The notes beneath the pieces are model-generated. The model saw only the letters and a program-made list of their open reading frames with translations. It searched no databases and had not been told where the DNA came from. 48,224 bases of DNA from Okeania sp. SIO1I7 (lineage in GTDB: Bacteria; Cyanobacteriota; Cyanobacteriia; Cyanobacteriales; Microcoleaceae): positions 1 to 48,224 of the forward strand of contig JAAHGF010000043.1 of NCBI GenBank assembly GCA_010672585.1, read 5' to 3'. Positions within the stretch are counted from its first letter, which is position 1, and the number at the start of each line of letters is the position of its first letter. The translations under genes were made by a program, and so were the position numbers. This document shows, piece after piece, positions 9,358-38,264 of this stretch.

Positions 9358-10788
9358 TTAGAAACGGGAAGAAACCACCGGAATAGACGAAACGATCCGA
9401 AAACCCCTAATGATGCTGCGGTTGACGGTATTTCTGCTGCTACGCCTAGCACTCCGGCAAGTCCTAGAATAGTCGTTCCAGCAACCGCCACGCAGCAATC
9501 TCATATAACTCTCTCCCTCACTTTCCCAAGCACTACCATCAGTAGGCGCACCTTCGTAGTTCTGATGCCACACATCCTGACACCATTCCCAGATATTCCC
9601 GTGCATATCATATAAACCAAAAGCATTAGGAGGAAAAATTCCCACATCGGTTGTTTTTTGTCGATATTTTCCTTTAGGCGCCTTGCTATAAGTATAGTTG
9701 CCATCATAGTTAACTAACTCAGACGTTATAGTTTCTCCAAAATAAAATGGTGTGGTTGTTCCAGCGCGACAAGCATATTCCCACTGACTTTCACTTGGCA
9801 GTGTGTAAGTTTTTCCCATTTTTTGGGATAGTTTTTGACAAAATTCTACAGCATTGTACCATGAAACCTTTTCTACAGGGCAGTTTCCTCCTTTAAAGCT
9901 AGAGGGATTTTTTCCCATAATGGCTTGATATTGGTTTTGAGTAATAGAATATTTACTCATATAAAAAGGTTGCAGAGTAACTTCATGTTGGGGACTTTCA
10001 TTATCACGTCTTCCCTCTTCATTTTCTGGCGAACCCATAATAAAACTACCACCAGGAATAGCCACCATTTCCAATATCACACCATTACCCAAATCTTCAG
10101 TAAAAAATACTGCTTCATCGGAACGACGATCAATTTCTTCTCCTTTGTTGTTTACCGTTATTACATCAAATAGGTACAAATAAGAAATAGCAGGAGGCAT
10201 TCCAGGCCAAATTTTCTTCAAAGCTTCTACAGAAATAGCCAATCCCTCCGCCCCATCTTTCTCCATATTCGTAGCTACACCCAACACATGACCAGTTTCC
10301 AAGTCAACAACAGGTGCGCCACTATAACCTCTACGGAGGCGATCGCTTTCATCAACCAACAAATTCCAAACTGCCACCCTCTCATTATTTTGACGAGCGA
10401 AACGCTTTTTCCCAAAAGTTCCATCAATAGTTTCCAGCAAGATTTTTTTCTCCTCACCATAGAGATAATGACCTGCTGTCCGAAATTTTCGATTTTTTGC
10501 TTCAGATAAACTTATTAACTGAAAAAGTGGCACATTCAGCTTTTCAACTCGCAATACTGCTAAATCAAAACCCTTAACATCTCCCGTTGCCAAAACTTCT
10601 GCCGGAATATTATTAACCAAAACATTTTCCTCACCACCCACATCCTCAACAACATGAGCACAGGTTAGCAAATAAGTATAATTATCCTCTCGATAAAAAG
10701 CAAATCCAGTTCCAATAACGTCTGCTTTGAAAGAGTTGTCACTAGCACTGGTAATTAAAACTATAGATTCTTCTAGGGGTAGACTCAT
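9358..10788 (-). CDS. Trypsin-like protease fused to a formylglycine-generating-enzyme (SUMF1) domain, copy 1
   Basis: A 476-residue two-domain protein. Residues 1-205 are a trypsin-like serine protease with His in LLTCAHVVED, Asp in GFDLAVLRVE and Ser in RRGYSGAPVVDLE. Residues about 230-470 are an FGE-sulfatase/C-type-lectin-like domain (GGSFIMGSPENEEGR, YSITQNQYQAIMG, LPSESQWEYACRAGTTTPF, NAFGLYDMHGNIWEW, GGCWNDYSRTCRSARR). No signal peptide is seen, so it is probably cytoplasmic. Trypsin-FGE fusions are typical of bacterial conflict/signalling systems in which the protease is kept inactive until triggered. True FGE oxidase activity is not implied; I cannot place the paired active-site cysteines. 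It is a paralog of 16670-18100. Confidence 0.88.
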   Translation of the reverse strand: MSLPLEESIVLITSASDNSFKADVIGTGFAFYREDNYTYLLTCAHVVEDVGGEENVLVNNIPAEVLATGDVKGFDLAVLRVEKLNVPLFQLISLSEAKNRKFRTAGHYLYGEEKKILLETIDGTFGKKRFARQNNERVAVWNLLVDESDRLRRGYSGAPVVDLETGHVLGVATNMEKDGAEGLAISVEALKKIWPGMPPAISYLYLFDVITVNNKGEEIDRRSDEAVFFTEDLGNGVILEMVAIPGGSFIMGSPENEEGRRDNESPQHEVTLQPFYMSKYSITQNQYQAIMGKNPSSFKGGNCPVEKVSWYNAVEFCQKLSQKMGKTYTLPSESQWEYACRAGTTTPFYFGETITSELVNYDGNYTYSKAPKGKYRQKTTDVGIFPPNAFGLYDMHGNIWEWCQDVWHQNYEGAPTDGSAWESEGESYMRLLRGGCWNDYSRTCRSARRSSRNTVNRSIIRGFRIVSSIPVVSSRF

Positions 10789-16669: not shown

Positions 16670-18100
16670 TCATCCAGTTCTCCCGGCATCGCATACTACA
16701 CGAAAACCAATATAAAAGTAGTGATTGTTGCGCCAAGAGAAGTCGTCGCGATACGCAGAACGGCAGGAATCAGCATAGAAGAACCAGCAACCGCCCCGCA
16801 GTACGGAATAATGTTCTTTTTCATCATTTTCTAGCCAAGTACTGCCATCAGTAGGAGCACTTTCATAGTTATCATGGAAATCATCAGCGCACCATTCCAA
16901 AACATTCCCGTGCATATCATATAAACCAAAAGCATTGGCAGGAAAACTTCCCACATCCGTTGTTTGTTCTCGATATTTGCCTTCAGGAGCATTACCATAG
17001 GCATAACGGCCATTACAGTTAACTAACTCAGACGTTATAGTTTCTCCAAAATAAAATGGTGTGTTTGTTCCAGCGCGACAAGCATATTCCCACTGACTCT
17101 CACTCGGTAGTCTGTAGTTTTTCCCAGTTTTCTGAGATAGCTTTTGACAAAATTCTACAGCATCGTACCATGACACACATTCTACTGGGCGGTTTCCTCC
17201 TTTAAAACTAGAGGGGTTTTTTCCCGTAATGGCTTGATATTGATTTTGAGTAATGGGGTATTTACTCATATAAAAAGGTTGGAGAGTAACTTGGTGTTGA
17301 GGACTTTCATTTTTATATCTTCCCTCTTCATTTTCTGGCGAACCCATAAGAAAAGTACCACTAGGAATGGAAACCATTTCTAAAATTACACCTTGACCCA
17401 AATCTTCAGTGAAAGGTTGTCGAAAAATGGCAAGAGGAATTTGAGGCCAAATTTTCTTCAAAGCTTCTACCGAAATAGCTAACCCCTCCGTTCCATCTTT
17501 CTCCATATTCGTAGCTACACCTAACACATGACCAGTTTCCAAGTCAACAACAGGTGCGCCACTATAACCTTTACGGAGGCGATCACCTTGATTTATTGAC
17601 AATCTCCAAGCTTTGACCTTTTCAGTAGATTTGTGAACGAGAGAAACCTCTTCAATCAAAATTCCATCCACTTTTTTGAAAAAATATTTTTTCTCTTCAC
17701 CATAGAGAGAATGACCTACTATCTGAACCCTTTTCTTGTTTAGATCCATCTGTAAATTAAGATTTGACCACCATTTTTTCAGAGGTTCAAAAATTGAATT
17801 ATCGGGGATTTCTTTTACCTTAAATAAACATATTGTCAGTAGTGGGATATTGAGATTTTCAACTTGCAAAACAGCTAGATCACAGCCCCGAATATCTCCT
17901 GTTGCAACAACTTCTGCCTGAATATCATTAACCAAAACATTTTCCTCACCACCCACATCCTCAACAACATGAGCACAGGTTAGCAAATAAGTATAATTAT
18001 CCTCTCGATAAAAAGCAAACCCAGTACCAATAACATCCGCTTTGCGAGAGTTGTCACTAGCACTGGAAATTAAAACAATAGATTCTTCTAAATTACTCAT
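16670..18100 (-). CDS. Trypsin-like protease fused to an FGE (SUMF1) domain, copy 2
   Basis: A 476-residue paralog of 9358-10788. The protease half keeps LLTCAHVVED, GCDLAVLQVE and RKGYSGAPVVDLE. It carries an extra segment (PLKKWWSNLNLQMDLNKKRV, residues about 103-122) absent from copy 1 and lacks the linker copy 1 has before the FGE domain. The FGE half has GTFLMGSPENEEGR, SESQWEYACRAGTNTPF, FGLYDMHGNVLEWC and GGCWFFYADSCRSAYRDD. Its ATG overlaps the 3' end of the Trypco1-like gene by 8 bp, so the two are translationally coupled. A conflict-system effector is the best guess. Confidence 0.88.
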   Translation of the reverse strand: MSNLEESIVLISSASDNSRKADVIGTGFAFYREDNYTYLLTCAHVVEDVGGEENVLVNDIQAEVVATGDIRGCDLAVLQVENLNIPLLTICLFKVKEIPDNSIFEPLKKWWSNLNLQMDLNKKRVQIVGHSLYGEEKKYFFKKVDGILIEEVSLVHKSTEKVKAWRLSINQGDRLRKGYSGAPVVDLETGHVLGVATNMEKDGTEGLAISVEALKKIWPQIPLAIFRQPFTEDLGQGVILEMVSIPSGTFLMGSPENEEGRYKNESPQHQVTLQPFYMSKYPITQNQYQAITGKNPSSFKGGNRPVECVSWYDAVEFCQKLSQKTGKNYRLPSESQWEYACRAGTNTPFYFGETITSELVNCNGRYAYGNAPEGKYREQTTDVGSFPANAFGLYDMHGNVLEWCADDFHDNYESAPTDGSTWLENDEKEHYSVLRGGCWFFYADSCRSAYRDDFSWRNNHYFYIGFRVVCDAGRTG

Positions 18101-18416
18101 TCTCTGACTTTTTAGGTTTCAGAACTAACTTAACCTTTAAATTCGTACCTGCCTTTGCTTTAGTAATATAAAGATTACCCTCCCCCTCAAAATTAAAACC
18201 CACTTCCACCTCAGCTTGTTCAATTTCCATATCTTTATTAATTTCTTGCCAAGCTTCAGCAATAGGGCGACTAATACTAATTAATATAGGTTTAACTTTA
18301 GCAAAACTAGACTTAACTTCTTTAATACCATTAGTAGAAATAGGCTGGGCTTCATTCTCTGGGACTTCTGCCTCAACTAAAATACCATCTTCTAATTCAA
18401 TTAATCTGGTGGCCAT
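18093..18416 (-). CDS. Trypsin-co-occurring domain (Trypco1 / CU044_2847-like) protein
   Basis: A 107-residue protein with the typical layout of this family: LIELEDGILVEAEVPE at the start, a middle helix (RPIAEAWQEINKDMEIEQAEVEVGFNFEGEGNLYI) and a final strand (AGTNLKVKLVLKP). The family is known for sitting beside trypsin-like proteases in predicted bacterial conflict/signalling systems. Here it directly precedes and overlaps one. It probably acts as an adaptor or regulator of the protease. Copy 1 of the locus has no equivalent. Confidence 0.78.
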   Translation of the reverse strand: MATRLIELEDGILVEAEVPENEAQPISTNGIKEVKSSFAKVKPILISISRPIAEAWQEINKDMEIEQAEVEVGFNFEGEGNLYITKAKAGTNLKVKLVLKPKKSENE

Positions 18417-20713: not shown

Positions 20714-20986
20714 CTAATAACGACGCATCTCATTCAGAAACTTATTCTGATAACGCAAAAATTCTCTCCGAGACTCCTGGGTACGACGTTTATTATATTG
20801 ATAAATAGACTCACGCAAATTTTCTAATTCCTTAATCCGACGTCGCTGATCCTTGAGAAATTCTTGCTGATATCTGAGATATTTTGTATGCCACTCATTA
20901 AAACGACGTTGACCATCACGAACTAACATTTGACGATAATGTTCGTGATTCAGCAAATGTATCGGAACATTACTAAGATCCCTCAT
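20714..20986 (-). CDS. Small basic, helical protein of unknown function
   Basis: I do not recognise this 90-residue protein (ATG at 20986; an alternative GTG lies one codon upstream). It is highly charged and predicted helical, with a repeated R-R-x(n)-EFL-x(2,3)-Q pattern (RYQQEFLKDQRRRIKELEN and SRREFLRYQNKFLNEMRRY), so it may form a coiled coil or bind nucleic acid. An AGAGG sits about 8 bp upstream. It lies downstream of the gas-vesicle genes on the same strand, but 210 bp of spacer separates them, so membership in that operon is uncertain. Confidence 0.55.
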   Translation of the reverse strand: MRDLSNVPIHLLNHEHYRQMLVRDGQRRFNEWHTKYLRYQQEFLKDQRRRIKELENLRESIYQYNKRRTQESRREFLRYQNKFLNEMRRY

Positions 20987-21198
20987 CACTCAATACCTCT
21001 CAAATAAACATCTAAATCCTAAAATTTTAACATTTTAGTTATTTAATTTAATATATCACAAAGGAATCAGGAATAAAGAAGAAGAAATAAATATTGAATC
21101 AAAAAAGGTAAATAATGATAGAGATAGGTAGTTTATACAATTTTAAAAACTTATTCTAGGCAGAAATTGATGACTTTCTTTGATTCTCTAACTCAAAT

Positions 21199-23226
21199 TT
21201 AAGACATTTTATTTATACTAGGATGCAATTTTACACTCATTCCAGCCCAAGAAACATTTTGTTCTATATAAGTTACAAACTTTGCTTTACCAGTAACTAA
21301 ATCATACTTAAATATTTGACCATTAAATATAGCAAATAATTCATCACCATAAAAATCTAGACAACCATAATTCTTGACTCCACTAGCACCACCAACAGCA
21401 ATGGGAGTACCATTATGATTAAGTCGCATCAGGTATCTTTGCCGATTATTATTATTACCAAAATTTGAATATGCTCTGCCCTTACTATCAAAAGCTAAAC
21501 CACCACAATAAAAAGGATAATAAGATTTATAAGACCTAATAATTCTTCCCGCGCCTGTCTTTACATTTACTCTTAATAATGTTTGAGGACTCATTGCATA
21601 AAGAGTTTTTCTATGTTTAGAAAAAGCTAAACTAGCTACTTTACTATTACCTAATTTCCCAATAATTGTAGTTTTGGCAGTGGTGGGATTTATTCTGACT
21701 AAATCAGTTGTTTTTTGGTCGCGCCACCGAATACCATAGAGTATATTTCCACAAAAAGCAATATCAACTATGTGCATACCCATAGAACCAATTAAGACTG
21801 TTTTTCCTGATTCTATATCTAGGGTATAGAGATTACTTGCTTTGCCTCTAGAGTACAAATCTTGAATATAGATTAATCCTTTAGTCTTTTTATAAACTAC
21901 GTCTAATGTTTCTGGAAGTTCTGAGGGGGAAACTTCGTCTGGGTCTTCTTGTTCTATATCGGTGGGGGGTTCCGAGGACTCTGGGGGTAATGGGATACCT
22001 GATGGGGATGCTTCGTCTAGCAGTTGGAATTGTTCTACTATATCGGTTGGTAATTCCGAGGAGTCTGGTTGTGACGGTGGTGGATCTGATTCTGGTTTTT
22101 TTTTTGGCTTTCCCAGGGGTTTTGTCTTCTGATTTTTTGTCTTTTTGTTTTGCTTACTACCAAGTAAATTATCTGTAACTGCCCCTATTCCTCCAGATAA
22201 ATTGTCTACAACTTCTCCTATTCCTTCAGATAAATTGTCTGTAACTTCTCCTATTCCTTCAGATAAATTATCTGTAACTTCCTCTAGTCCCTCAGATAAA
22301 TTATCTGTAACTTCCTCTAGTCCCTCAGATAAATTATCTGTAACTTCTCCTAGTCCTCCAGATAAATTGTCTACTATTTCTCCTCCACTATTACCAAGAG
22401 ATTTCAAACTTTGCAATGGATTAGTAAGTAGGGATAAAGGGTTCAAAAAGAGAAGTTTTAAAAAATTGCCAATTGTAGTAATAAATGCTATTAAAGTTTT
22501 AACAATATATTTGATAAATGACCAAATTTTACCAACTACATCAACTATAAATAAATAAATTTTTACTGGAATAGCAATGAATACTTGAAATAGTATTTTC
22601 ACCCATAAAAATATTTTCTTAACAGTGTCAATTATAAATTCATAGATTTTGATAATTAGATTTATACAAGCTTTAAAAACAGCTTTTATCCATGACCTAA
22701 TTTTGCCGACAATTTGAACTATAAATAAATAGGTTTTAACTGGAATAGCAATGAATATTTGAAATAGTATTTTGACTCCTAAAAATATTTGGCTAATTTT
22801 ATCGATTATAAATTCATATATTTTGACGATTAAATTCACACAAGCTTTAAAAACAGCTTTCAGCCATGACCAAATTTTGCCGATCGCCTGAAGTAAAAAG
22901 AGATATATTTTTACGGGAATCGCAATAAATACTTGAAATAGTGTTTTTATCCCTGAAAATATATTGCTAATAAAAGTGAAAATGAATGGAAAAAAGTTTT
23001 TGATATAACTAAACATTCCTATCAAAAGATTCAAACCTGGTAAAGGTAGTTTTTCTGTAACATTTTCCACCTTATCTGTTAATTCATTTGGCAAATATTT
23101 GAGAGAAGATAAATTTTCTGTGGGCAAATTTTCAGTAATATTTTCTACGACATCAGTAGTTTTATTGAAAGGATTGGGAATACTAGGTAAATTCCCTTTC
23201 TCTTGCAGATTTTTGAAATTTTTCAT
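21199..23226 (-). CDS. Large modular protein: amphipathic 58-mer repeats, 11-mer repeats, beta-propeller-like C-terminus
   Basis: A 675-residue protein I cannot place in a family. Residues 1-65 hold short VENITENLP / VENVTEKLP motifs. Residues 89-262 are three near-identical 58-residue hydrophobic, lysine-spaced repeats (each with FQVFIAIPVKIYLF, GKIWSW and IKIYEFIID). Residues about 292-367 are seven 11-residue repeats (GEVTDNLSEGL). A K/P/S-rich linker follows to about 440. The last 230 residues carry repeating NLYTLDIESGK / DLVRINPTTAK / LLRVNVKTGAG blades, like a beta-propeller. No signal peptide is seen. A strong ribosome-binding site (AAAGGAG) precedes ATG. It lies 430 bp downstream of gvpA on the same strand. 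The repeats could lie on a membrane or on the gas-vesicle shell; this is inference. Confidence 0.8.
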   Translation of the reverse strand: MKNFKNLQEKGNLPSIPNPFNKTTDVVENITENLPTENLSSLKYLPNELTDKVENVTEKLPLPGLNLLIGMFSYIKNFFPFIFTFISNIFSGIKTLFQVFIAIPVKIYLFLLQAIGKIWSWLKAVFKACVNLIVKIYEFIIDKISQIFLGVKILFQIFIAIPVKTYLFIVQIVGKIRSWIKAVFKACINLIIKIYEFIIDTVKKIFLWVKILFQVFIAIPVKIYLFIVDVVGKIWSFIKYIVKTLIAFITTIGNFLKLLFLNPLSLLTNPLQSLKSLGNSGGEIVDNLSGGLGEVTDNLSEGLEEVTDNLSEGLEEVTDNLSEGIGEVTDNLSEGIGEVVDNLSGGIGAVTDNLLGSKQNKKTKNQKTKPLGKPKKKPESDPPPSQPDSSELPTDIVEQFQLLDEASPSGIPLPPESSEPPTDIEQEDPDEVSPSELPETLDVVYKKTKGLIYIQDLYSRGKASNLYTLDIESGKTVLIGSMGMHIVDIAFCGNILYGIRWRDQKTTDLVRINPTTAKTTIIGKLGNSKVASLAFSKHRKTLYAMSPQTLLRVNVKTGAGRIIRSYKSYYPFYCGGLAFDSKGRAYSNFGNNNNRQRYLMRLNHNGTPIAVGGASGVKNYGCLDFYGDELFAIFNGQIFKYDLVTGKAKFVTYIEQNVSWAGMSVKLHPSINKMS

Positions 23227-23262
23227 CTCAAACTCCTTTAATCAATTAAAAGGTTTAAAAAG

Positions 23263-23655: not shown

Positions 23656-23928
23656 TTATACTAAACTAGGAGAAGCCATCGGTTGTCCTATTTCAGTTTC
23701 ATCAACAACTTCTGCTCCTGGTGCTGCTGCTAGAGCTGTTAAACCAACTGCTTCGGCATATTTTAAGTAAGTTTCTACTGAAGCAATAACTATCCTAGCT
23801 TCAACTGCAAGTAATTCAATACCTACTAAAGAAACTCGTACCCAGGCATCAATGACAACACCTTTGTCAAGAATGCGGTCTACGACTTCTGCTAGACTGG
23901 AAGATGAGTTAACTTTTTCTACTGCCAT
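23656..23928 (-). CDS. gvpA: Gas vesicle structural protein GvpA, copy 2 (acidic C-terminal tail)
   Basis: The main shell protein of gas vesicles. The first 67 residues are canonical: [49 protein letters not shown]. At 90 residues it is longer than the usual ~70; the extra tail ([20 protein letters not shown]) is acidic and differs from that of copy 1. AAAGGAAT lies upstream of ATG. It is the third gene of gvpA-gvpC-gvpA on the minus strand, 39 bp after gvpC. Confidence 0.95.
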
Positions 23929-23967: not shown

Positions 23968-24447
23968 TTAAGAACCCCAAACATAATCATGCAATTTAGT
24001 TCGGAAGCGCTGTAATTTCTCAGTCAACTCCTGAGACATTAATGCCCGCTCAGAACTGAATTGTTCCTGAAGTTGCAACACCTCAAGCTTAAGTTCTAAT
24101 ACTTCTTGTTTGCGTTTAGCAATATCTTCTAACCGCTCCTGACGTGCTTGTTGTTCATACAAACGAAGTGCTTCAACATAATCTTCTAACATTGTCCGCA
24201 CTTGTTGATGACGTTCGGCATTATCCAGTTGTCTTTGCTGTTTTTCTGCCAAACCTGTTTCCTGAAGTTTTGTCACAAACTCCTGTAACATAGTGTGAAG
24301 CATCTGAGCTTCTTCATTAAGCTCTTGTCTAATAGCACGAAGTTCCGCTTGAGTTTGTTGTCTGTGTTGGGCAACCTCTAGTTTGCGTTCGGCAATTTCC
24401 GTTAATCTTTGCGATCGCTCTTTTGCCCATGTATCTTTAAGAGCCAT
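23968..24447 (-). CDS. gvpC: Gas vesicle protein GvpC
   Basis: A 159-residue, almost entirely helical, glutamine/glutamate-rich protein. GvpC stiffens the gas vesicle from outside and is built of imperfect 33-residue repeats; here these are degenerate (QTQAELRAIRQELNEEAQ, LHTMLQEFVTKLQETGLAEK, VRTMLEDYVEALRLYEQQA, LQRFRTKLHDYVWGS). The N-terminus MALKDTWAKERSQRLTEIAE is typical. It sits between the two gvpA genes, 21 bp after copy 1, and is surely co-transcribed. Confidence 0.93.
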   Translation of the reverse strand: MALKDTWAKERSQRLTEIAERKLEVAQHRQQTQAELRAIRQELNEEAQMLHTMLQEFVTKLQETGLAEKQQRQLDNAERHQQVRTMLEDYVEALRLYEQQARQERLEDIAKRKQEVLELKLEVLQLQEQFSSERALMSQELTEKLQRFRTKLHDYVWGS

Positions 24448-24468: not shown

Positions 24469-24762
24469 TTAATAAGCTCCAGCAGCAGAAGGTTCTGTTA
24501 CTCCTATTGCGTCCATAGGTTCATCATCTAAATCATTAGACATAGCTTCTCCTGGTGCTGCGGCTAGAGCTGTCAAACCAACTGCTTCGGCATATTTTAA
24601 GTAAGTTTCTACTGAAGCAATGACTACCCTAGCTTCAATTGCCAGTAATTCAATACCGACTAAGGAAACACGAACCCAAGCATCTATGACAACACCTTTG
24701 TCAAGAATGCGGTCTACAACTTCGGCTAGACTGGAAGATGAGTTGATTTTTTCTACTGCCAT
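24469..24762 (-). CDS. gvpA: Gas vesicle structural protein GvpA, copy 1
   Basis: First gene of the minus-strand gvpA-gvpC-gvpA operon. The core differs from copy 2 only by conservative changes (EKI/EKV, AIEARVV/AVEARIV). It has 97 residues, with its own tail ([20 protein letters not shown], then SAAGAY) beyond the usual end. AAAGGAATAAAAATT precedes ATG at 24762. The promoter must lie in the ~75 bp before the repeat at 24836, or beyond that repeat. Confidence 0.95.
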
Positions 24763-26276: not shown

Positions 26277-26436
26277 AGTAGGGTGCGTTAGCGTTTGCGC
26301 AGCATTCCGCACCGAAAGCGTAACTGAGCGAAATATTTGGCAGAGTAACCGTTTGCGCAGCATTCCGCACCGAAAGCGTAACTGAGCGAAATATTTCGGA
26401 TAGAAGGTGCGTTACATTTCATTAACGCACCCTACT
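26277..26436. repeat. 160-bp MITE-like element with perfect AGTAGGGTGCGTTA ends, between duplicated gene ends
   Basis: AGTAGGGTGCGTTA (26277-26290) is exactly inverted at 26423-26436. The core is a roughly 60-bp tandem duplication of GTTTGCGCAGCATTCCGCAC plus CGAAAGCGTAACTGAGCG. The last bases overlap the TAG stop of the AAA ATPase. Flanking DNA on each side is the same ~135 bp of ATPase coding sequence. Confidence 0.88.
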
Positions 26437-28381
26437 TGCTAGAATCAGAATTAAAATTGTGAGACTGTTTTTGACTCATTAGAGCATTGTAAGCAGTAGT
26501 AAAGTGAGCATTTCTAATCCGAATTTTGTTTGGAGACTTAATTCCTTTAGCACTATAACTACGAATAGCAGCTAAAGCCGCTTGATTAGTCAACAATGCC
26601 AAATCTGCTCCATTCCAACCTTCGGTACAATTTGCCCAATCATCCAAATTTACTCCTTGCAGTGGACGGTCTTGATTATGAACTTTCAAAATTGCTAAAC
26701 GACCTGCTTTATCTGGTAAGTCTACTTTAATTTGCAAATCTAATCTTCCCGCTCGCAGTAATGCTGAGTCTAGAGCATCAGGACGGTTAGTTGCTCCTAC
26801 CAATAATACCTGAGTACAGTCGCGTAAACCATCTAATTCTGTTAATAGCTGACCAACTAGGCGATCGCTTACTCCAGAATCTCCGATAAATTTACCACGA
26901 GCAGGAGCTAGAGTATCAATCTCATCAATAAATATTACACAAGGTGCAACTTGTCTAGCTTTAGAGAAAAGTTCTCGTACTGCTTCTTCTGCTGCTCCCA
27001 CCCATTTACTGAGCAACTCTGGTCCGTTGACAGCAATAAAATTAGCTTGTGCTTGGGAAGCAACTGCTTTTGCCAGCAAAGTTTTTCCGGTTCCTGGTTC
27101 GCCCCATAATAAAATTCCTTTGGGAGCTTTTGCCTTAGTTTGTTCGTATAATTCTGGATACAGTAATGCTCCCTCCACTGACTCTTGTAATTTTTGTTTG
27201 ACTGCATCCAGACCACCAATATTTTGCCAACTTACATTAGGAACTTCTACCGCTACAGACCGTAACACAGAAGGTTTAATTTCTTTAATTGCTGCCAGAA
27301 AATCAGTTTGCAACAAACTCATATCCTCCGGAGTCGGACTATCCAAAGATGGAACTTGACGACGGAGAGCTAAATAAGCTGCTTTTTGACATAAAGCTTT
27401 TAAGTCAGCACCCACTAACCCAACTGCCATATCAGCAATTTCTCCCAAATCAACAGAACTATCTAATGGCATAGAATTTGTCATTATCTGCAAAATTTCT
27501 AATCTTCCATTGCGGTCTGGAATACGGAAATTAATTTCTCGGTCAAATCTTCCCGGACGACGGAGAGCAGGATCGATATGGTCTGGGCGATTTGTTGCAG
27601 CTAAAATTAAGACACCCTGATGTTCGACAAATCCATCCATTAGTCCCAATAATTGGGCAACTAATCGTTTTTCGACTTCTCCTTCGACTTTGCTACGGTC
27701 TGGAGCAATACTATCAATCTCATCTATAAATATCAGACAAGGAGCAGATTGTTTTGCTTTGGTAAAAATTTTGCGTAATCTCGCTTCTGCTTCCCCATAA
27801 TATTTGCTGATTACTTCGGGCCCGTTAATTGCAATATAATTGAGTCTCAGTTCTTCTGCTATTGCTTTAGCTGTGAGAGTTTTACCCGTACCTGGCGGTC
27901 CAACTAATAAAACTCCACGAGCAGGTTCTAGTCCTAATTGTGATAATAGATCGGGGCGTTTGAGAGGGAGTTCTATTACTTCTCTTAATTCTTGAATTAT
28001 TTCGGACATACCTCCAATGTCTTTGAGGGTAGGTCTTGATTTAGTTTCTGGGGGTGGGGGAGTAAAGTTAGTTTGCTGTTGAGGTCTGTTTTCTGTGACA
28101 CCGCCAGTTTCTTTTGGGGTGGGTGCTGGTTTTGTGTCTGGCGGTGGGGGAGTAAAATTAGTTGGTTGTGGAGGTCTAGTTTGTCTGGGAGGTTGTCTGA
28201 TTTGGGTTTGATAAGGGTCTCTTCTTCTTGGTATGTTAGTGTTAGTTCTTCTGGGAGTATTGTTAATAGTTCGAGACTGTACCTGATAGGAAGTTTTTAC
28301 TTCCCCTGTTTCGGATTTTTTTTCTAGAACTTTTGCTAATTCTATTATTTGTCTTAAGTCTAATCTTAAAAAATGATTCAT
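26432..28381 (-). CDS. Tandem-AAA ATPase of the CDC48/p97 type, gas-vesicle-cluster associated
   Basis: A 649-residue protein. Residues 1-120 form a short helix plus a Pro/Arg-rich low-complexity linker in which TNFTPPPP(D/E)TK is repeated. AAA-1 has GPPGTGKT with IFIDEIDSIAPDRS and ATNRPDHIDPALRRPGRFD. AAA-2 has GEPGTGKT with IFIDEIDTLAPARG and ATNRPDALDSALLRAGRLD. It is a p97-like unfoldase without the p97 N-domain. Such ATPases recur in cyanobacterial gvp clusters and may remodel Gvp complexes. It lies between the two gvpF/L genes on the same strand. Its 3' end is duplicated around a small element. Confidence 0.9.
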   Translation of the reverse strand: MNHFLRLDLRQIIELAKVLEKKSETGEVKTSYQVQSRTINNTPRRTNTNIPRRRDPYQTQIRQPPRQTRPPQPTNFTPPPPDTKPAPTPKETGGVTENRPQQQTNFTPPPPETKSRPTLKDIGGMSEIIQELREVIELPLKRPDLLSQLGLEPARGVLLVGPPGTGKTLTAKAIAEELRLNYIAINGPEVISKYYGEAEARLRKIFTKAKQSAPCLIFIDEIDSIAPDRSKVEGEVEKRLVAQLLGLMDGFVEHQGVLILAATNRPDHIDPALRRPGRFDREINFRIPDRNGRLEILQIMTNSMPLDSSVDLGEIADMAVGLVGADLKALCQKAAYLALRRQVPSLDSPTPEDMSLLQTDFLAAIKEIKPSVLRSVAVEVPNVSWQNIGGLDAVKQKLQESVEGALLYPELYEQTKAKAPKGILLWGEPGTGKTLLAKAVASQAQANFIAVNGPELLSKWVGAAEEAVRELFSKARQVAPCVIFIDEIDTLAPARGKFIGDSGVSDRLVGQLLTELDGLRDCTQVLLVGATNRPDALDSALLRAGRLDLQIKVDLPDKAGRLAILKVHNQDRPLQGVNLDDWANCTEGWNGADLALLTNQAALAAIRSYSAKGIKSPNKIRIRNAHFTTAYNALMSQKQSHNFNSDSSK

Positions 28382-31560: not shown

Positions 31561-33441
31561 ATGGAACTTTTTAATAACCTAAACTTAGCAATGTTTAGTG
31601 GCAAAGGAGGCGTGGGAAAAACCACAACTTCTTGTGCTTTTGCTTGCCAATGGGCGAAAAAATTCCCTAATGAAAAAATCCTCTTAATTTCTACCGATCC
31701 TGCCCACTCTTTAGGAGATGTCCTGCAAATACAAGTCACAGATACACCAATACCCTTACAAACTTTACCCAATCTTTCAGTTAGAGCTTTAGACGCTAAT
31801 CTCCTGCTCGAAGAATTCAAACAACGTTACGGCGATATCCTAGAACTACTGGTAGAACGAGGTAGTTTTGTTGAAGGGGAAGACCTCACCCCAGTCTGGG
31901 ATTTAGATTGGCCAGGATTAGACGAATTAATGGGTTTACTGGAAATACAACGCCTCTGTAACGAAAAGGTAGTCAATCGAGTAGTAGTAGATATGGCTCC
32001 GAGTGGTCATACTCTCAACTTATTCCGACTAATGGATTTTTTGGATACCCTACTCAACTCCCTAGAACTTTTTCAACAGAAATATCGCTACATAAAGGAA
32101 AGTTTCGCGGGTAAGTATACACCAGATGAGGCAGATGAAACATTAAAAAATCTTAAGGAAGAATTAGCAGCAGGTCGTCATTTATTACAAGAGTCTCCTA
32201 ATACCGCTTGTTTAGTTATGGCACTACCCGAACCTATGAGTTTTCAGGAGACCAGGAGATTTTTAGATTCTTTGGAAAATCTGAAAATTCCTTACGGTGC
32301 GATTTTTGTGAATCAAATTGTTATAGATAAGGATAGTAGTGGCGATCGCTGTCTGGAACAAGGAAAGTTAGTTAGTCAGTTTATGGAACTGGCAGGAGAA
32401 AAATCGGTATACCTGATACCCCAACAAAAATTTGAACCTTTAGGTATAACTGCCCTAGAAAATCTAATAGACCAAATTTCTCCAGCAGAAAGTCTACCAC
32501 TCTCAACTTCTGGGAAAGTAGATATTAAATGGCCGGAAAAAATTCCTCCTGGTTTTACCGACTTTATTGAAGAGGGTAAGCGTTTATTAATTATTGGGGG
32601 AAAAGGAGGAGTAGGGAAAACTACTATAGCTGCTGCCATTGGTTGGGAAATGGCACAACGACATCCTGACTGTCAAATTAGGACTGTTTCTATTGATCCT
32701 GCCCATTCTTTAGGAGATGCTTTTGGTCTAACTCTAAGCCATGAACCATCTATAATTAATACTAATCTCAAAGGACAAGAAGTAGAATCAGATCGAGTTC
32801 TTGACAAATTTCGAGAAGATTATTTGTGGGAATTAGCAGAAATAATGAGTGGGGAAAAACCAGATAATTCAGCATCTTTTGAAATGGCATTTGCTCCCCA
32901 GGGATGGCGTCAAATTGTCGAGCAAGCTTTACCTGGTATTGATGAAATATTATCCTTATTAACAGTAATTGAATTGTTGGAGGAAAACCAAGAAGATTTA
33001 ATTATTTTAGATACTGCTCCGACTGGTCATTTATTACGTTTTTTAGAAATGCCTAGTGCCATGCAAGATTGGTTAAGTTGGATTTTTAAACTATGGATAA
33101 AATATCAAGATATTATTGGTCGAACCGAATTTATGGGGCGTTTAAGAACTTTACGAAAACGGGTAGTTAATGCACAAAAAATTCTCAAAGATTCACAAAA
33201 AACAGAATTTATTGGAGTCATGCGTCCCCAGACTGGAGTTATTGCCGAAGCAGAACGTCTTTATCAATCTCTTGTAGAAAAGGAGATAGCACAAAATTAT
33301 GTAGTTTTAAATTGTTTTACCTCTAATAGCCTTGTTCCTAGAGATAAATTTCCAGGAGCAAAAATTGTTTGTATGCCAATGTTACCTCGTTCAATTGAAC
33401 CTATCGAACAAATTAAAGGAGCAGCTAATTATTTATTTTGA
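31561..33441 (+). CDS. Tandem ArsA/Get3-type ATPase, gas-vesicle-cluster associated
   Basis: A 626-residue protein with two signal-recognition-GTPase-like (deviant Walker A) ATPase domains: SGKGGVGKTTTS at the N-terminus and GGKGGVGKTTIA near residue 347. Each has STDPAHSLGDV / SIDPAHSLGDA and a switch DMAPSGHTL / DTAPTGHLL. ArsA powers arsenite export and Get3 inserts tail-anchored membrane proteins. In the gvp neighbourhood, without arsB/arsD/arsR, a chaperone role for hydrophobic Gvp proteins is more likely than arsenic resistance (inference). It has the full double-domain length. Confidence 0.88.
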   Translation: MELFNNLNLAMFSGKGGVGKTTTSCAFACQWAKKFPNEKILLISTDPAHSLGDVLQIQVTDTPIPLQTLPNLSVRALDANLLLEEFKQRYGDILELLVERGSFVEGEDLTPVWDLDWPGLDELMGLLEIQRLCNEKVVNRVVVDMAPSGHTLNLFRLMDFLDTLLNSLELFQQKYRYIKESFAGKYTPDEADETLKNLKEELAAGRHLLQESPNTACLVMALPEPMSFQETRRFLDSLENLKIPYGAIFVNQIVIDKDSSGDRCLEQGKLVSQFMELAGEKSVYLIPQQKFEPLGITALENLIDQISPAESLPLSTSGKVDIKWPEKIPPGFTDFIEEGKRLLIIGGKGGVGKTTIAAAIGWEMAQRHPDCQIRTVSIDPAHSLGDAFGLTLSHEPSIINTNLKGQEVESDRVLDKFREDYLWELAEIMSGEKPDNSASFEMAFAPQGWRQIVEQALPGIDEILSLLTVIELLEENQEDLIILDTAPTGHLLRFLEMPSAMQDWLSWIFKLWIKYQDIIGRTEFMGRLRTLRKRVVNAQKILKDSQKTEFIGVMRPQTGVIAEAERLYQSLVEKEIAQNYVVLNCFTSNSLVPRDKFPGAKIVCMPMLPRSIEPIEQIKGAANYLF

Positions 33442-37486: not shown

Positions 37487-37695
37487 ATACAGCAATAAAA
37501 ATCAAAACTAGCAAAGATATTCTCAGTAGTAAAGCTATTCGTGGGTGTTTGTCTTGTCGCGGTTTCCATGGTCGCAATAATAGAGCAGTGGAAAGAGCTA
37601 GAATGCGTATTGCCAGAACTGAAGTTATGTCTCACAGAGAACTTCAACAATGGCGGTTTGTTCGATGGCAAGCTTTACAACGTTTGAGAATTTAG
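37477..37695 (+). CDS. Small arginine-rich protein between gvpJ and gvpK
   Basis: A 72-residue, very basic protein (FHGRNNRAVERARMRIARTE, WRFVRWQALQRLRI) with a CLSC motif (residues 24-27) that could bind metal or a disulfide partner. It overlaps the gvpJ stop by 10 bp, which supports a real, co-expressed gene. I do not recognise the family. Its location suggests a gas-vesicle accessory role, unproven. Confidence 0.65.
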   Translation: MAIDTAIKIKTSKDILSSKAIRGCLSCRGFHGRNNRAVERARMRIARTEVMSHRELQQWRFVRWQALQRLRI

Positions 37696-37796
37696 AATTT
37701 AGAATTCAGAATTTAGAAGTAATTCCTGACCAGTTAGTTAGCAAGAGCCAAAAAATTACACCCCTACTCCCCCACTCCCCTACTCCCCTACTTCTT

Positions 37797-38264
37797 ATGT
37801 CTCCAGAAGAACCCTCAATAATTCCTATTGGCAAATCTAAAAGTAAGTCTGAAGCAGGGTTAGCTCCATTGTTATTAACAGTAATTGAGTTAGTACGGCA
37901 ATTAATGGAAGCTCAGGTAATTCGGCGAATGGATGCAGAAATGTTGAGTGATGAAGAATTAGACCGTGCTGCCGAAAGTCTGCGACAGTTGGAAGAACAG
38001 GTGATTAAACTGTGCGAAGTATTTGATATTGACCCCGAAGATTTGAATTTGGATTTGGGTGAAATTGGTACTTTGTTGCCCAAGTCGGGAGAGTATTATC
38101 CAGGAGAAAATTCTGAAAGTCCTTCTATATTGGAATTATTAGACCGAATCATTAATACTGGGGTGGTTTTGGATGGCAGTCTTGATTTGGGGTTAGCAGA
38201 GTTAAGTTTGATTCATGCTCGTTTACACTTGGTTTTAACTTCTAAACCAATTTCTCAAAGATAA
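37797..38264 (+). CDS. gvpK: Gas vesicle protein GvpK
   Basis: A 155-residue minor gas vesicle protein with LAPLLLTVIELVRQLMEAQV, RRMDAEMLSDEELDRAAESL and, at the C-terminus, ILELLDRIINTGVVLDGSLD, the family hallmarks. The start is ATG at 37797 (MSPEEPSIIP); an upstream in-frame extension to 37650 runs through GAATTTAGAATTC heptamers and CTCCCC repeats and is not credible. Last recognised gvp gene in the plus-strand group; gvpV and gvpW are not in the window. Confidence 0.93.
   Translation: MSPEEPSIIPIGKSKSKSEAGLAPLLLTVIELVRQLMEAQVIRRMDAEMLSDEELDRAAESLRQLEEQVIKLCEVFDIDPEDLNLDLGEIGTLLPKSGEYYPGENSESPSILELLDRIINTGVVLDGSLDLGLAELSLIHARLHLVLTSKPISQR

What the first reader, a model, noticed from the sequence alone, without database searches (positions are those of the whole stretch)
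21199..23226. Unrecognised 675-residue repeat/propeller protein next to gvpA-gvpC-gvpA
Three near-identical 58-residue cationic, amphipathic repeats (FQVFIAIPVKIYLF, IKIYEFIID) are followed by seven 11-residue GEVTDNLSEGL repeats, a K/P-rich spacer and a beta-propeller-like domain. I know of no gas-vesicle protein with this layout. The strong Shine-Dalgarno and co-orientation downstream of gvpA suggest it is expressed with the vesicle genes. The hydrophobic repeats could lie along a membrane or the vesicle surface, with the propeller as a display or docking head, making it a candidate for vesicle tethering, clustering or buoyancy signalling.
Basis: partly seen in the sequence, partly recalled or inferred. 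Interest (0 to 1): 0.8.

Follow-up and report, generated by a model that had tools for sequence, protein, structure and literature searches.

The report
Probable gas-vesicle docking protein
A large, lineage-restricted protein encoded beside the gas-vesicle shell genes of an Okeania-like cyanobacterium joins a long greasy, positively charged helix array to a positively charged propeller head, and it turns up together with a negatively charged tail on the vesicle shell protein, so it probably docks on vesicles and may link them to a membrane or to each other.

Summary
The ORF is real: 675 aa, single copy, good Shine-Dalgarno, right after gvpA-gvpC-gvpA. Layout: three 58-residue hydrophobic cationic repeats (pairwise 71/52/45% identical, not near-identical), seven 11-residue repeats (282-357), a charged linker, a DUF6923-like beta-propeller. 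No Gvp model matches. Orthologs were found in seven related genomes plus one remnant: beside gvpA in five, unlinked in one (G011), context unknown in one (G034, frameshifted, no gvpA found).

Beyond linkage: all six genomes with gene and gvpA have an acidic C-terminal GvpA tail (89-97 aa). In 84 others read, GvpA is 67-75 aa in 83; one has an unrelated tail. G011 has the tail although its gene is unlinked; two Trichodesmium-like relatives lack both. The propeller is basic (+13 to +20, 7 of 7), unlike eight related propellers (-7 to +4).

Best explanation: the basic propeller docks on acidic GvpA tails and the helices bind a membrane or other surface, tethering or coating vesicles. Association is fairly well supported, docking is inferred from co-evolution, tethering is speculative. 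The pattern is about one gain and one loss.

The parts
21199..23226 (-). 675-aa ORF, the protein of the finding
23233..23239 (-). Shine-Dalgarno AAAGGAG
23041..23226 (-). residues 1-62, polar N-terminal segment with helical periodicity
   Evidence: 1 of 1000 shuffles reaches the observed moment
22441..23040 (-). residues 63-262, hydrophobic cationic helix array with 58-residue repeats
   Evidence: low-confidence helices
22156..22383 (-). residues 282-357, seven 11-residue (11/3) acidic amphipathic repeats
21895..22155 (-). residues 358-444, K-rich then P/E/D-rich linker
22096..22105 (-). A10 homopolymer in the linker; A9 with a frame break in G034, A10 in G002, A11 in G004 and G021
21232..21894 (-). 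residues 445-665, basic beta-propeller (DUF6923-related, about five blades by my count)
23656..23928 (-). gvpA copy 2, 90 aa with acidic C-terminal extension
23659..23712 (-). acidic GvpA tail [18 protein letters not shown], proposed docking site
23968..24447 (-). gvpC-like ORF, 159 aa (label from position and composition; no Gvp match in Pfam)
24469..24762 (-). gvpA copy 1, 97 aa with acidic C-terminal extension
24472..24546 (-). acidic GvpA tail of copy 1
20714..20989 (-). 91-aa basic ORF downstream; repeat-bearing relatives elsewhere in the family

Best explanation
This is a lineage-specific accessory gas-vesicle protein that binds the outside of the vesicle. Inferred mechanism: the strongly basic beta-propeller at the C-terminus recognises, or is held electrostatically by, the acidic C-terminal tails that GvpA carries in this lineage, which would be displayed in many copies on the shell. 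The charged linker and the 11-residue-repeat helix act as a stalk, and the hydrophobic cationic amphipathic helices lie in an anionic membrane surface (thylakoid or plasma membrane) or bind neighbouring proteins, so that vesicles are tethered or coated. Shown: anatomy, co-occurrence of gene and tail, different charge of the propeller, purifying selection on the propeller. Inferred: docking on the tail. Speculative: the membrane partner and the tether or coat outcome.
For: Adjacent to gvpA-gvpC-gvpA in G000, G001, G002, G004 and G021. Acidic GvpA tail in 6 of 6 genomes with gene and gvpA; of 84 other genomes with GvpA read, 83 have 67-75 aa and one (G019) has an unrelated non-acidic tail (91 of the 108 gvpA-matching genomes were examined). 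Tail motif shared with G011 (DESEMGQPVASPNI against [15 protein letters not shown]), where the gene is unlinked to gvp. The rpoB tree places G011 outside g1 plus g7 (support 0.977), so tail and gene look ancestral, and both are missing from G010 and G028. Propeller net charge +13 to +20 in 7 of 7 against -7 to +4 in the 8 related propellers compared; Lys at 518 and 524 where 7 of the 8 have Asp. Propeller omega 0.20-0.50, like gvpC 0.26-0.44. In G003, where most of the gvp cluster is gone, about 0.4 kb of this gene is left. Elongated GvpA C-termini are suggested to lie on the shell surface in B. megaterium (PMC10185304, passages).
Against: The pattern amounts to about one gain and one loss, so the Fisher value of 1e-8 ignores shared ancestry; gene against gvpA presence alone gives p 0.017-0.037, ancestry again ignored. 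Gene and tail sit side by side in most of these genomes and could be lost together by chance. G034 keeps most of the gene (frame broken, contig cut) with no gvpA or gvpN found. G001 keeps the tail and the propeller but has lost the hydrophobic and 11-mer repeats and the Shine-Dalgarno. G019 has a long GvpA without this gene. Linker and 11-mer region are weakly constrained in several comparisons. The full-length model is poor (pLDDT 43). In G003 genes outside the gvp cluster on that side decay too. Okeania is described as lacking aerotopes (PMC11820161, passages). No interaction or expression data.
Confidence: 0.42

Rival explanations
1. Opposite polarity: the cationic amphipathic helices lie on the vesicle shell over the acidic GvpA C-termini, as GvpC does, and the propeller is an outward head that binds something else (another vesicle, a polyanion, a membrane protein).
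For: Each hydrophobic segment carries 6-9 basic against 1-2 acidic residues and keeps one helical face. [quoted passage not shown]
Against: No detectable similarity to the local gvpC-like ORF. G001 has lost the helices but keeps the propeller and the acidic tail. The family-specific charge difference is in the propeller.
Confidence: 0.25
2. A membrane- or interface-coating protein unrelated to gas vesicles, which merely sits beside the gvp cluster.
For: Unlinked copy in G011; persistence without detected gvpA in G034; propeller relatives away from gvp; the flanking region is syntenic among close relatives anyway.
Against: Match with the acidic GvpA tail among 90 genomes read, G011 included; decay alongside the gvp cluster in G003.
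Confidence: 0.22
3. A degenerating or phase-variable repeat protein with little present function; the A10 tract in the linker switches the propeller on and off.
For: Repeat copy number varies (three in G000, G002, G004; two in G021; none in G001); A9 with a frame break in G034; linker omega 0.52-1.20.
Against: Propeller omega 0.20-0.50 and an open frame in six of seven non-remnant copies, one of them cut by a contig end. The A9 could be a sequencing error in a homopolymer.
Confidence: 0.08
4. A derivative of a phage tail tape-measure protein.
For: PHROGs tape-measure models match residues 20-358 down to E 5e-13; the forward segment alone reaches 4e-11.
Against: The reversed segment matches the same kind of families to E 1.7e-9 while two shuffles match none, so most of the match reflects helical periodicity. 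No phage gene was recognised among the neighbours that I annotated with Pfam.
Confidence: 0.02

Closest known systems
GvpC, the outer stabilising gas-vesicle protein
   Same: Encoded with gvpA; long amphipathic helical repeats; possibly binds over acidic GvpA C-termini
   Different: No sequence similarity to the local gvpC-like ORF; periods of 58 and 11 residues instead of 33; adds a propeller; a gvpC-like ORF is present as well
DUF6923 / DUF4394 domains (PF21959, PF14339)
   Same: The C-terminal domain matches DUF6923 (26.8 bits against a cut-off of 27 here; 36.3 in the G011 homolog)
   Different: Strongly basic, fused to hydrophobic helices, next to gvp genes
Perilipin-type 11-mer amphipathic helices
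   Same: 11-residue repeats with 11/3 helical periodicity, as in perilipins that coat lipid droplets (PMC5889406, passages)
   Different: No family match at cut-off (Apolipoprotein 21.1 bits against 90); a bulky hydrophobic cationic segment precedes it; likeness of pattern only
Propeller proteins with open frames of about 1100-1190 aa in g11 genomes (G019, G029 and others; Microcoleus-like by my guess)
   Same: 36-38% identical propeller in a protein with a long helical-looking repeat region
   Different: Near-neutral propeller at the N-terminus, different repeats, not in gvp clusters where I looked

Membership tests
Known Gvp families | Match to a curated Gvp model | tested here: not met
   No Gvp match in Pfam or NCBIfam up to E 1. 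Neighbouring gvpA, gvpF/L, gvpG and gvpK genes do match; the local gvpC-like ORF does not match in Pfam either, so such models can miss a Gvp
GvpC | 33-residue amphipathic repeats similar to GvpC | tested here: not met
   Periods of 58 and 11 residues; no BLASTP or profile match to the local gvpC-like ORF
GvpC | Bound to the outside of the vesicle shell | not testable with these tools
   Needs vesicle purification
DUF6923 | Score above the Pfam gathering cut-off | tested here: inconclusive
   26.8 bits against 27 for the window protein's domain; 36.3 for the G011 homolog
Beta-propeller fold | Predicted fold matches solved propellers | tested here: met
   pTM 0.78, 20 strands; 1076 PDB matches at E 0.001 or better; the 50 listed are Kelch, TolB, LRP-type, designed and other entries that I know as propellers, with query TM-scores of about 0.5-0.65
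Perilipin / apolipoprotein 11-mer proteins | 11-residue repeats with 11/3 periodicity | tested here: met
   Best angle 98 degrees, moment 0.53 against a shuffle mean of 0.13
Perilipin / apolipoprotein 11-mer proteins | Match to the family model | tested here: not met
   Apolipoprotein 21.1 bits against a cut-off of 90
Phage tape-measure proteins | Similarity clearly beyond helical periodicity | tested here: not met
   The reversed control matches too: 1.7e-9 against 4e-11 forward

The most novel reading that the evidence does not exclude
A two-part docking system for gas vesicles: GvpA gained an acidic peptide tail that turns the shell into a docking surface, and a dedicated basic-propeller adaptor with membrane-lying helices reads it, giving a gas-vesicle tether. 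Both parts were gained together and lost together in the Trichodesmium-like branch.
Probability: 0.3. Interest if true: 0.78.

Novelty: new variant of a known kind. Interest (0 to 1): 0.6.

Why it matters
How gas vesicles are positioned, clustered or attached inside cells is, to my knowledge (recalled), poorly understood. A specific tail-adaptor pair would give a testable handle on it, and a basic propeller plus an acidic GvpA tail could serve as a modular way to decorate engineered vesicles. Three searches of the open-access library ('gas vesicle' + 'propeller' + 'gvpC'; 'GvpA' + 'C-terminal extension' + 'gas vesicle'; at least four of 'gas vesicle protein', amphipathic, membrane, anchor, Microcoleaceae) listed one, one and three papers. 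By title and start of abstract none is about such a protein; of these five I looked at passages of one only (PMC10185304).

Tried and rejected
Phage tape-measure origin: matches down to E 5e-13, set aside because the reversed sequence also matches. Relationship to GvpC: none found. Trans-membrane protein: the best 19-residue Kyte-Doolittle window is 2.06 and all 16 listed windows above 1.8 contain a lysine, so in-plane amphipathic helices are preferred, but spanning segments are not excluded. Distant relatives of the helix domain: none outside this clade in a sample of 292 phylum genomes or 388 order genomes (where at most 8 candidates per genome were scored, so absence is weaker). Viral contigs (propeller), plasmids (whole protein) and PDB sequences (propeller) gave no match. 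Weak hits in G047, G354 and G331 are an acidic frame, a WD40-like frame with a helix-rich N-terminus, and a simple-repeat frame by my reading; dropped as chance or convergent. For the charge comparison I left out the weaker or broken propeller matches of G332, G171, G023 and G017. PADLOC was not searched. Co-transcription stayed open.

Full report
WHAT IS THERE. The window is a whole contig (C48) of a 9.48-Mb genome. I therefore call the host Okeania-like; its own record is unnamed. ORF 21199-23226 (-) encodes 675 aa, in single copy, after gvpA (97 aa), a gvpC-like ORF (159 aa) and gvpA (90 aa), all on the minus strand. The cluster continues with GvpF/L-family ORFs, a CDC48-like AAA ATPase, GvpG, a double ArsA-type ATPase, ORFs that I label gvpN and gvpJ, and a GvpK-Gas_vesicle fusion.

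ANATOMY. Residues 63-262 hold the 58-residue repeats, hydrophobic and cationic (6-9 K/R against 1-2 D/E per segment). The helical hydrophobic moments of segments 93-150, 151-208 and 209-262 (0.42-0.49) are reached by 0 of 1000 shuffles each. Residues 275-358 have their best periodicity at 98 degrees, the 11/3 helix, again with 0 of 1000 shuffles reaching the value. The linker (148 of 1000) and propeller (972 of 1000) show no such helical periodicity (all). A 58-residue unit is 16 turns at 99.3 degrees (my arithmetic), so successive units can keep one face. The full-length AlphaFold2 model draws helices 65-100, 106-160, 163-217, 222-275 and 286-354, at very low confidence (pLDDT 43, pTM 0.34). 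The propeller alone models better (pLDDT 73, pTM 0.78, 20 strands; the five models ranged from 40 to 73; five blades is my count). Foldseek finds 1076 PDB matches at E 0.001 or better, led by Kelch and TolB propellers with query TM-scores of about 0.5-0.65; these folds are known to me from memory for binding peptides.

FAMILIES. No Gvp model matches. The propeller is DUF6923-related (26.8 bits against 27; 36.3 in the G011 homolog). PHROGs tape-measure matches were tested with controls: the forward segment reaches 4e-11, the reversed segment 1.7e-9, and two shuffles match nothing, so this is mostly shared helical periodicity.

DISTRIBUTION. Of 61 held genomes of the family, 19 match at E 0.001. 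Eight are orthologs: G000, G001, G002, G004, G021, G011, G034 and a remnant in G003; the other 11 are propeller-only or weak. The helix domain was found in no other lineage in samples of 292 phylum genomes and 388 order genomes (at most 8 candidates per genome scored). The gene lies beside gvpA in G000, G001, G002, G004 and G021. In G011 it lies near sodB- and hemC-like genes (my reading of the translations) with no match to the window's gvp ORFs in the 20 kb read, while gvpL-gvpC-gvpA lie on another contig. In G034 the contig ends inside the gene, the frame breaks at an A9 tract (A10 in the window), and neither gvpA nor gvpN was found. G001 lacks the hydrophobic and 11-mer repeats and has an expanded spacer. 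G003 has lost most of the gvp cluster; about 0.4 kb of this gene remains, and genes beyond it on that side are decayed too. In the 59 genomes, gene and gvpA co-occur in 7 (G003 remnants included), gene without gvpA in 1, gvpA without gene in 19, neither in 32 (Fisher p 0.017; 0.035-0.037 under other countings). So the protein is not needed for gas vesicles in general.

THE GVPA TAIL. GvpA in every genome with gene and gvpA is 89-97 aa with an acidic C-terminal tail. In the order-wide search (388 genomes, 108 with a match) only G000, G001, G002, G004, G021 and G011 matched to residue 89-90 of the 90-residue query (the listing is cut, best first). I then examined GvpA in 91 of the 108 genomes, often one copy per genome; 17 were not examined. 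It was read in 76 and in 14 of the remaining 15 (G025 has only a GvpJ-like match). Of these 90, 83 are 67-75 aa and 7 are longer: the six with this gene, and G019, whose 154-residue GvpA has a Gly/Val/Pro-rich, non-acidic tail and which lacks this gene, though it has a neutral propeller relative elsewhere in its genome. The tail motif is shared between Okeania and G011. An rpoB tree of 22 genomes puts G011 outside g1 plus g7 (support 0.977), with G010, G016, G025, G028 and G031 grouped (0.919) inside g7 with G021 and G034; the order of the last two is unresolved. Gene and tail thus look ancestral to this clade, and both are missing in G010 and G028, whose GvpA cores are 88% and 96% identical to the window's. 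That is about one gain and one shared loss, so the Fisher value 1e-8 overstates the evidence.

CHARGE. The seven family propellers carry net +13 to +20; the eight related propellers compared carry -7 to +4 (Mann-Whitney p 0.0014; phylogeny ignored in both). Four weaker or broken propeller matches (G332, G171, G023, G017) were left out. Residues basic in all seven and in none of the eight include R500, K505, K518, K524, K529, K567 and K582 (one search prints them one too high; numbering checked); at 518 and 524 seven of the eight have Asp. As a composition control, rpoB net charge is similar in the seven family genomes (-1.7 to -2.2 per 100 residues) and in G019 (-2.0) and G007 (-2.4), the only two of the eight in the rpoB set.

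SELECTION. Omega (NG86) is 0.20-0.50 for the propeller, 0.26-0.44 for gvpC and 0.11-0.34 for gvpA. Leaving out pairs with G001, it is 0.16-0.91 for the hydrophobic region and 0.50-1.95 for the 11-mer region; for the linker, all pairs, it is 0.52-1.20. The extremes rest on few substitutions. The propeller is maintained; the stalk is loose.

MECHANISM. Acidic tails on GvpA and a basic propeller in the same lineage suggest docking. Extended GvpA C-termini are suggested to lie on the shell surface in B. megaterium, and GvpC is modelled over the negatively charged GvpA C-terminus (PMC10185304, passages). The helix array resembles in pattern the 11-mer helices with which perilipins bind lipid droplets (PMC5889406, passages). 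I therefore propose propeller on vesicle, helices on a membrane or neighbouring surface. The reverse polarity is the main rival; G001, which keeps propeller and tail without the helices, leans against it, but that copy may be decaying (degraded Shine-Dalgarno, 1.2-kb upstream gap). Okeania is described as lacking aerotopes (PMC11820161, passages), so whether and when these vesicles are made is open.

VERDICT. Observation confirmed with small corrections; interpretation partly supported. Subjective probabilities: functional association with vesicles about 0.75; docking through the GvpA tail about 0.5; tethering as the outcome about 0.35.

Noticed in passing
window 20714-20989 (-): A 91-aa basic ORF downstream of the finding. 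Relatives with several roughly 34-residue repeats occur in G010, G028, G031 and G025 (in G010 next to a gvpF/L-family gene), and matches of 38-51 residues occur in six g3 genomes, in G015 and G024 far from their gvpA genes. Possible second accessory vesicle protein.
   Followed up: partly
window 37650-38264 (+): GvpK fused to a second Gas_vesicle (GvpA/J-type) domain; similar ORFs in G010, G025 and G021.
   Followed up: no
window 31561-33441 (+): A double ArsA/GET3-type ATPase inside the gvp cluster, also beside gvp genes in G010, G025 and G028. A membrane-insertion type ATPase in a gas-vesicle cluster is unexpected to me.
   Followed up: no
window 26432-28381 (-): A CDC48-like double-AAA ATPase in the gvp cluster with very low omega (0.06-0.16).
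   Followed up: no
L033/L095 (G003 contig C223): A close relative that has lost most of its gvp cluster, apparently in separate deletions, leaving gvpN and GvpK-fusion remnants.
   Followed up: partly
L192 (G019 C1:1900000-1915000): A 154-aa GvpA with a Gly/Val/Pro-rich repeat tail.
   Followed up: no
L032:8817-11273: The G011 homolog has an extra C-terminal stretch of about 180 residues; its last 177 residues have no Pfam match up to E 1.
   Followed up: partly
window 16670-18416 and 9358-10788: Trypsin-FGE-sulfatase protein with a Trypco1/CU044_2847 partner, and a second 476-aa ORF upstream that seems to be of the same family (the same relatives match both); looks like a conflict-type module.
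   Followed up: no
L084 (G354 contig C45): A 585-aa frame with a helix-rich N-terminal part followed by WD40-like repeats, a similar plan to the finding but probably convergent.
   Followed up: no
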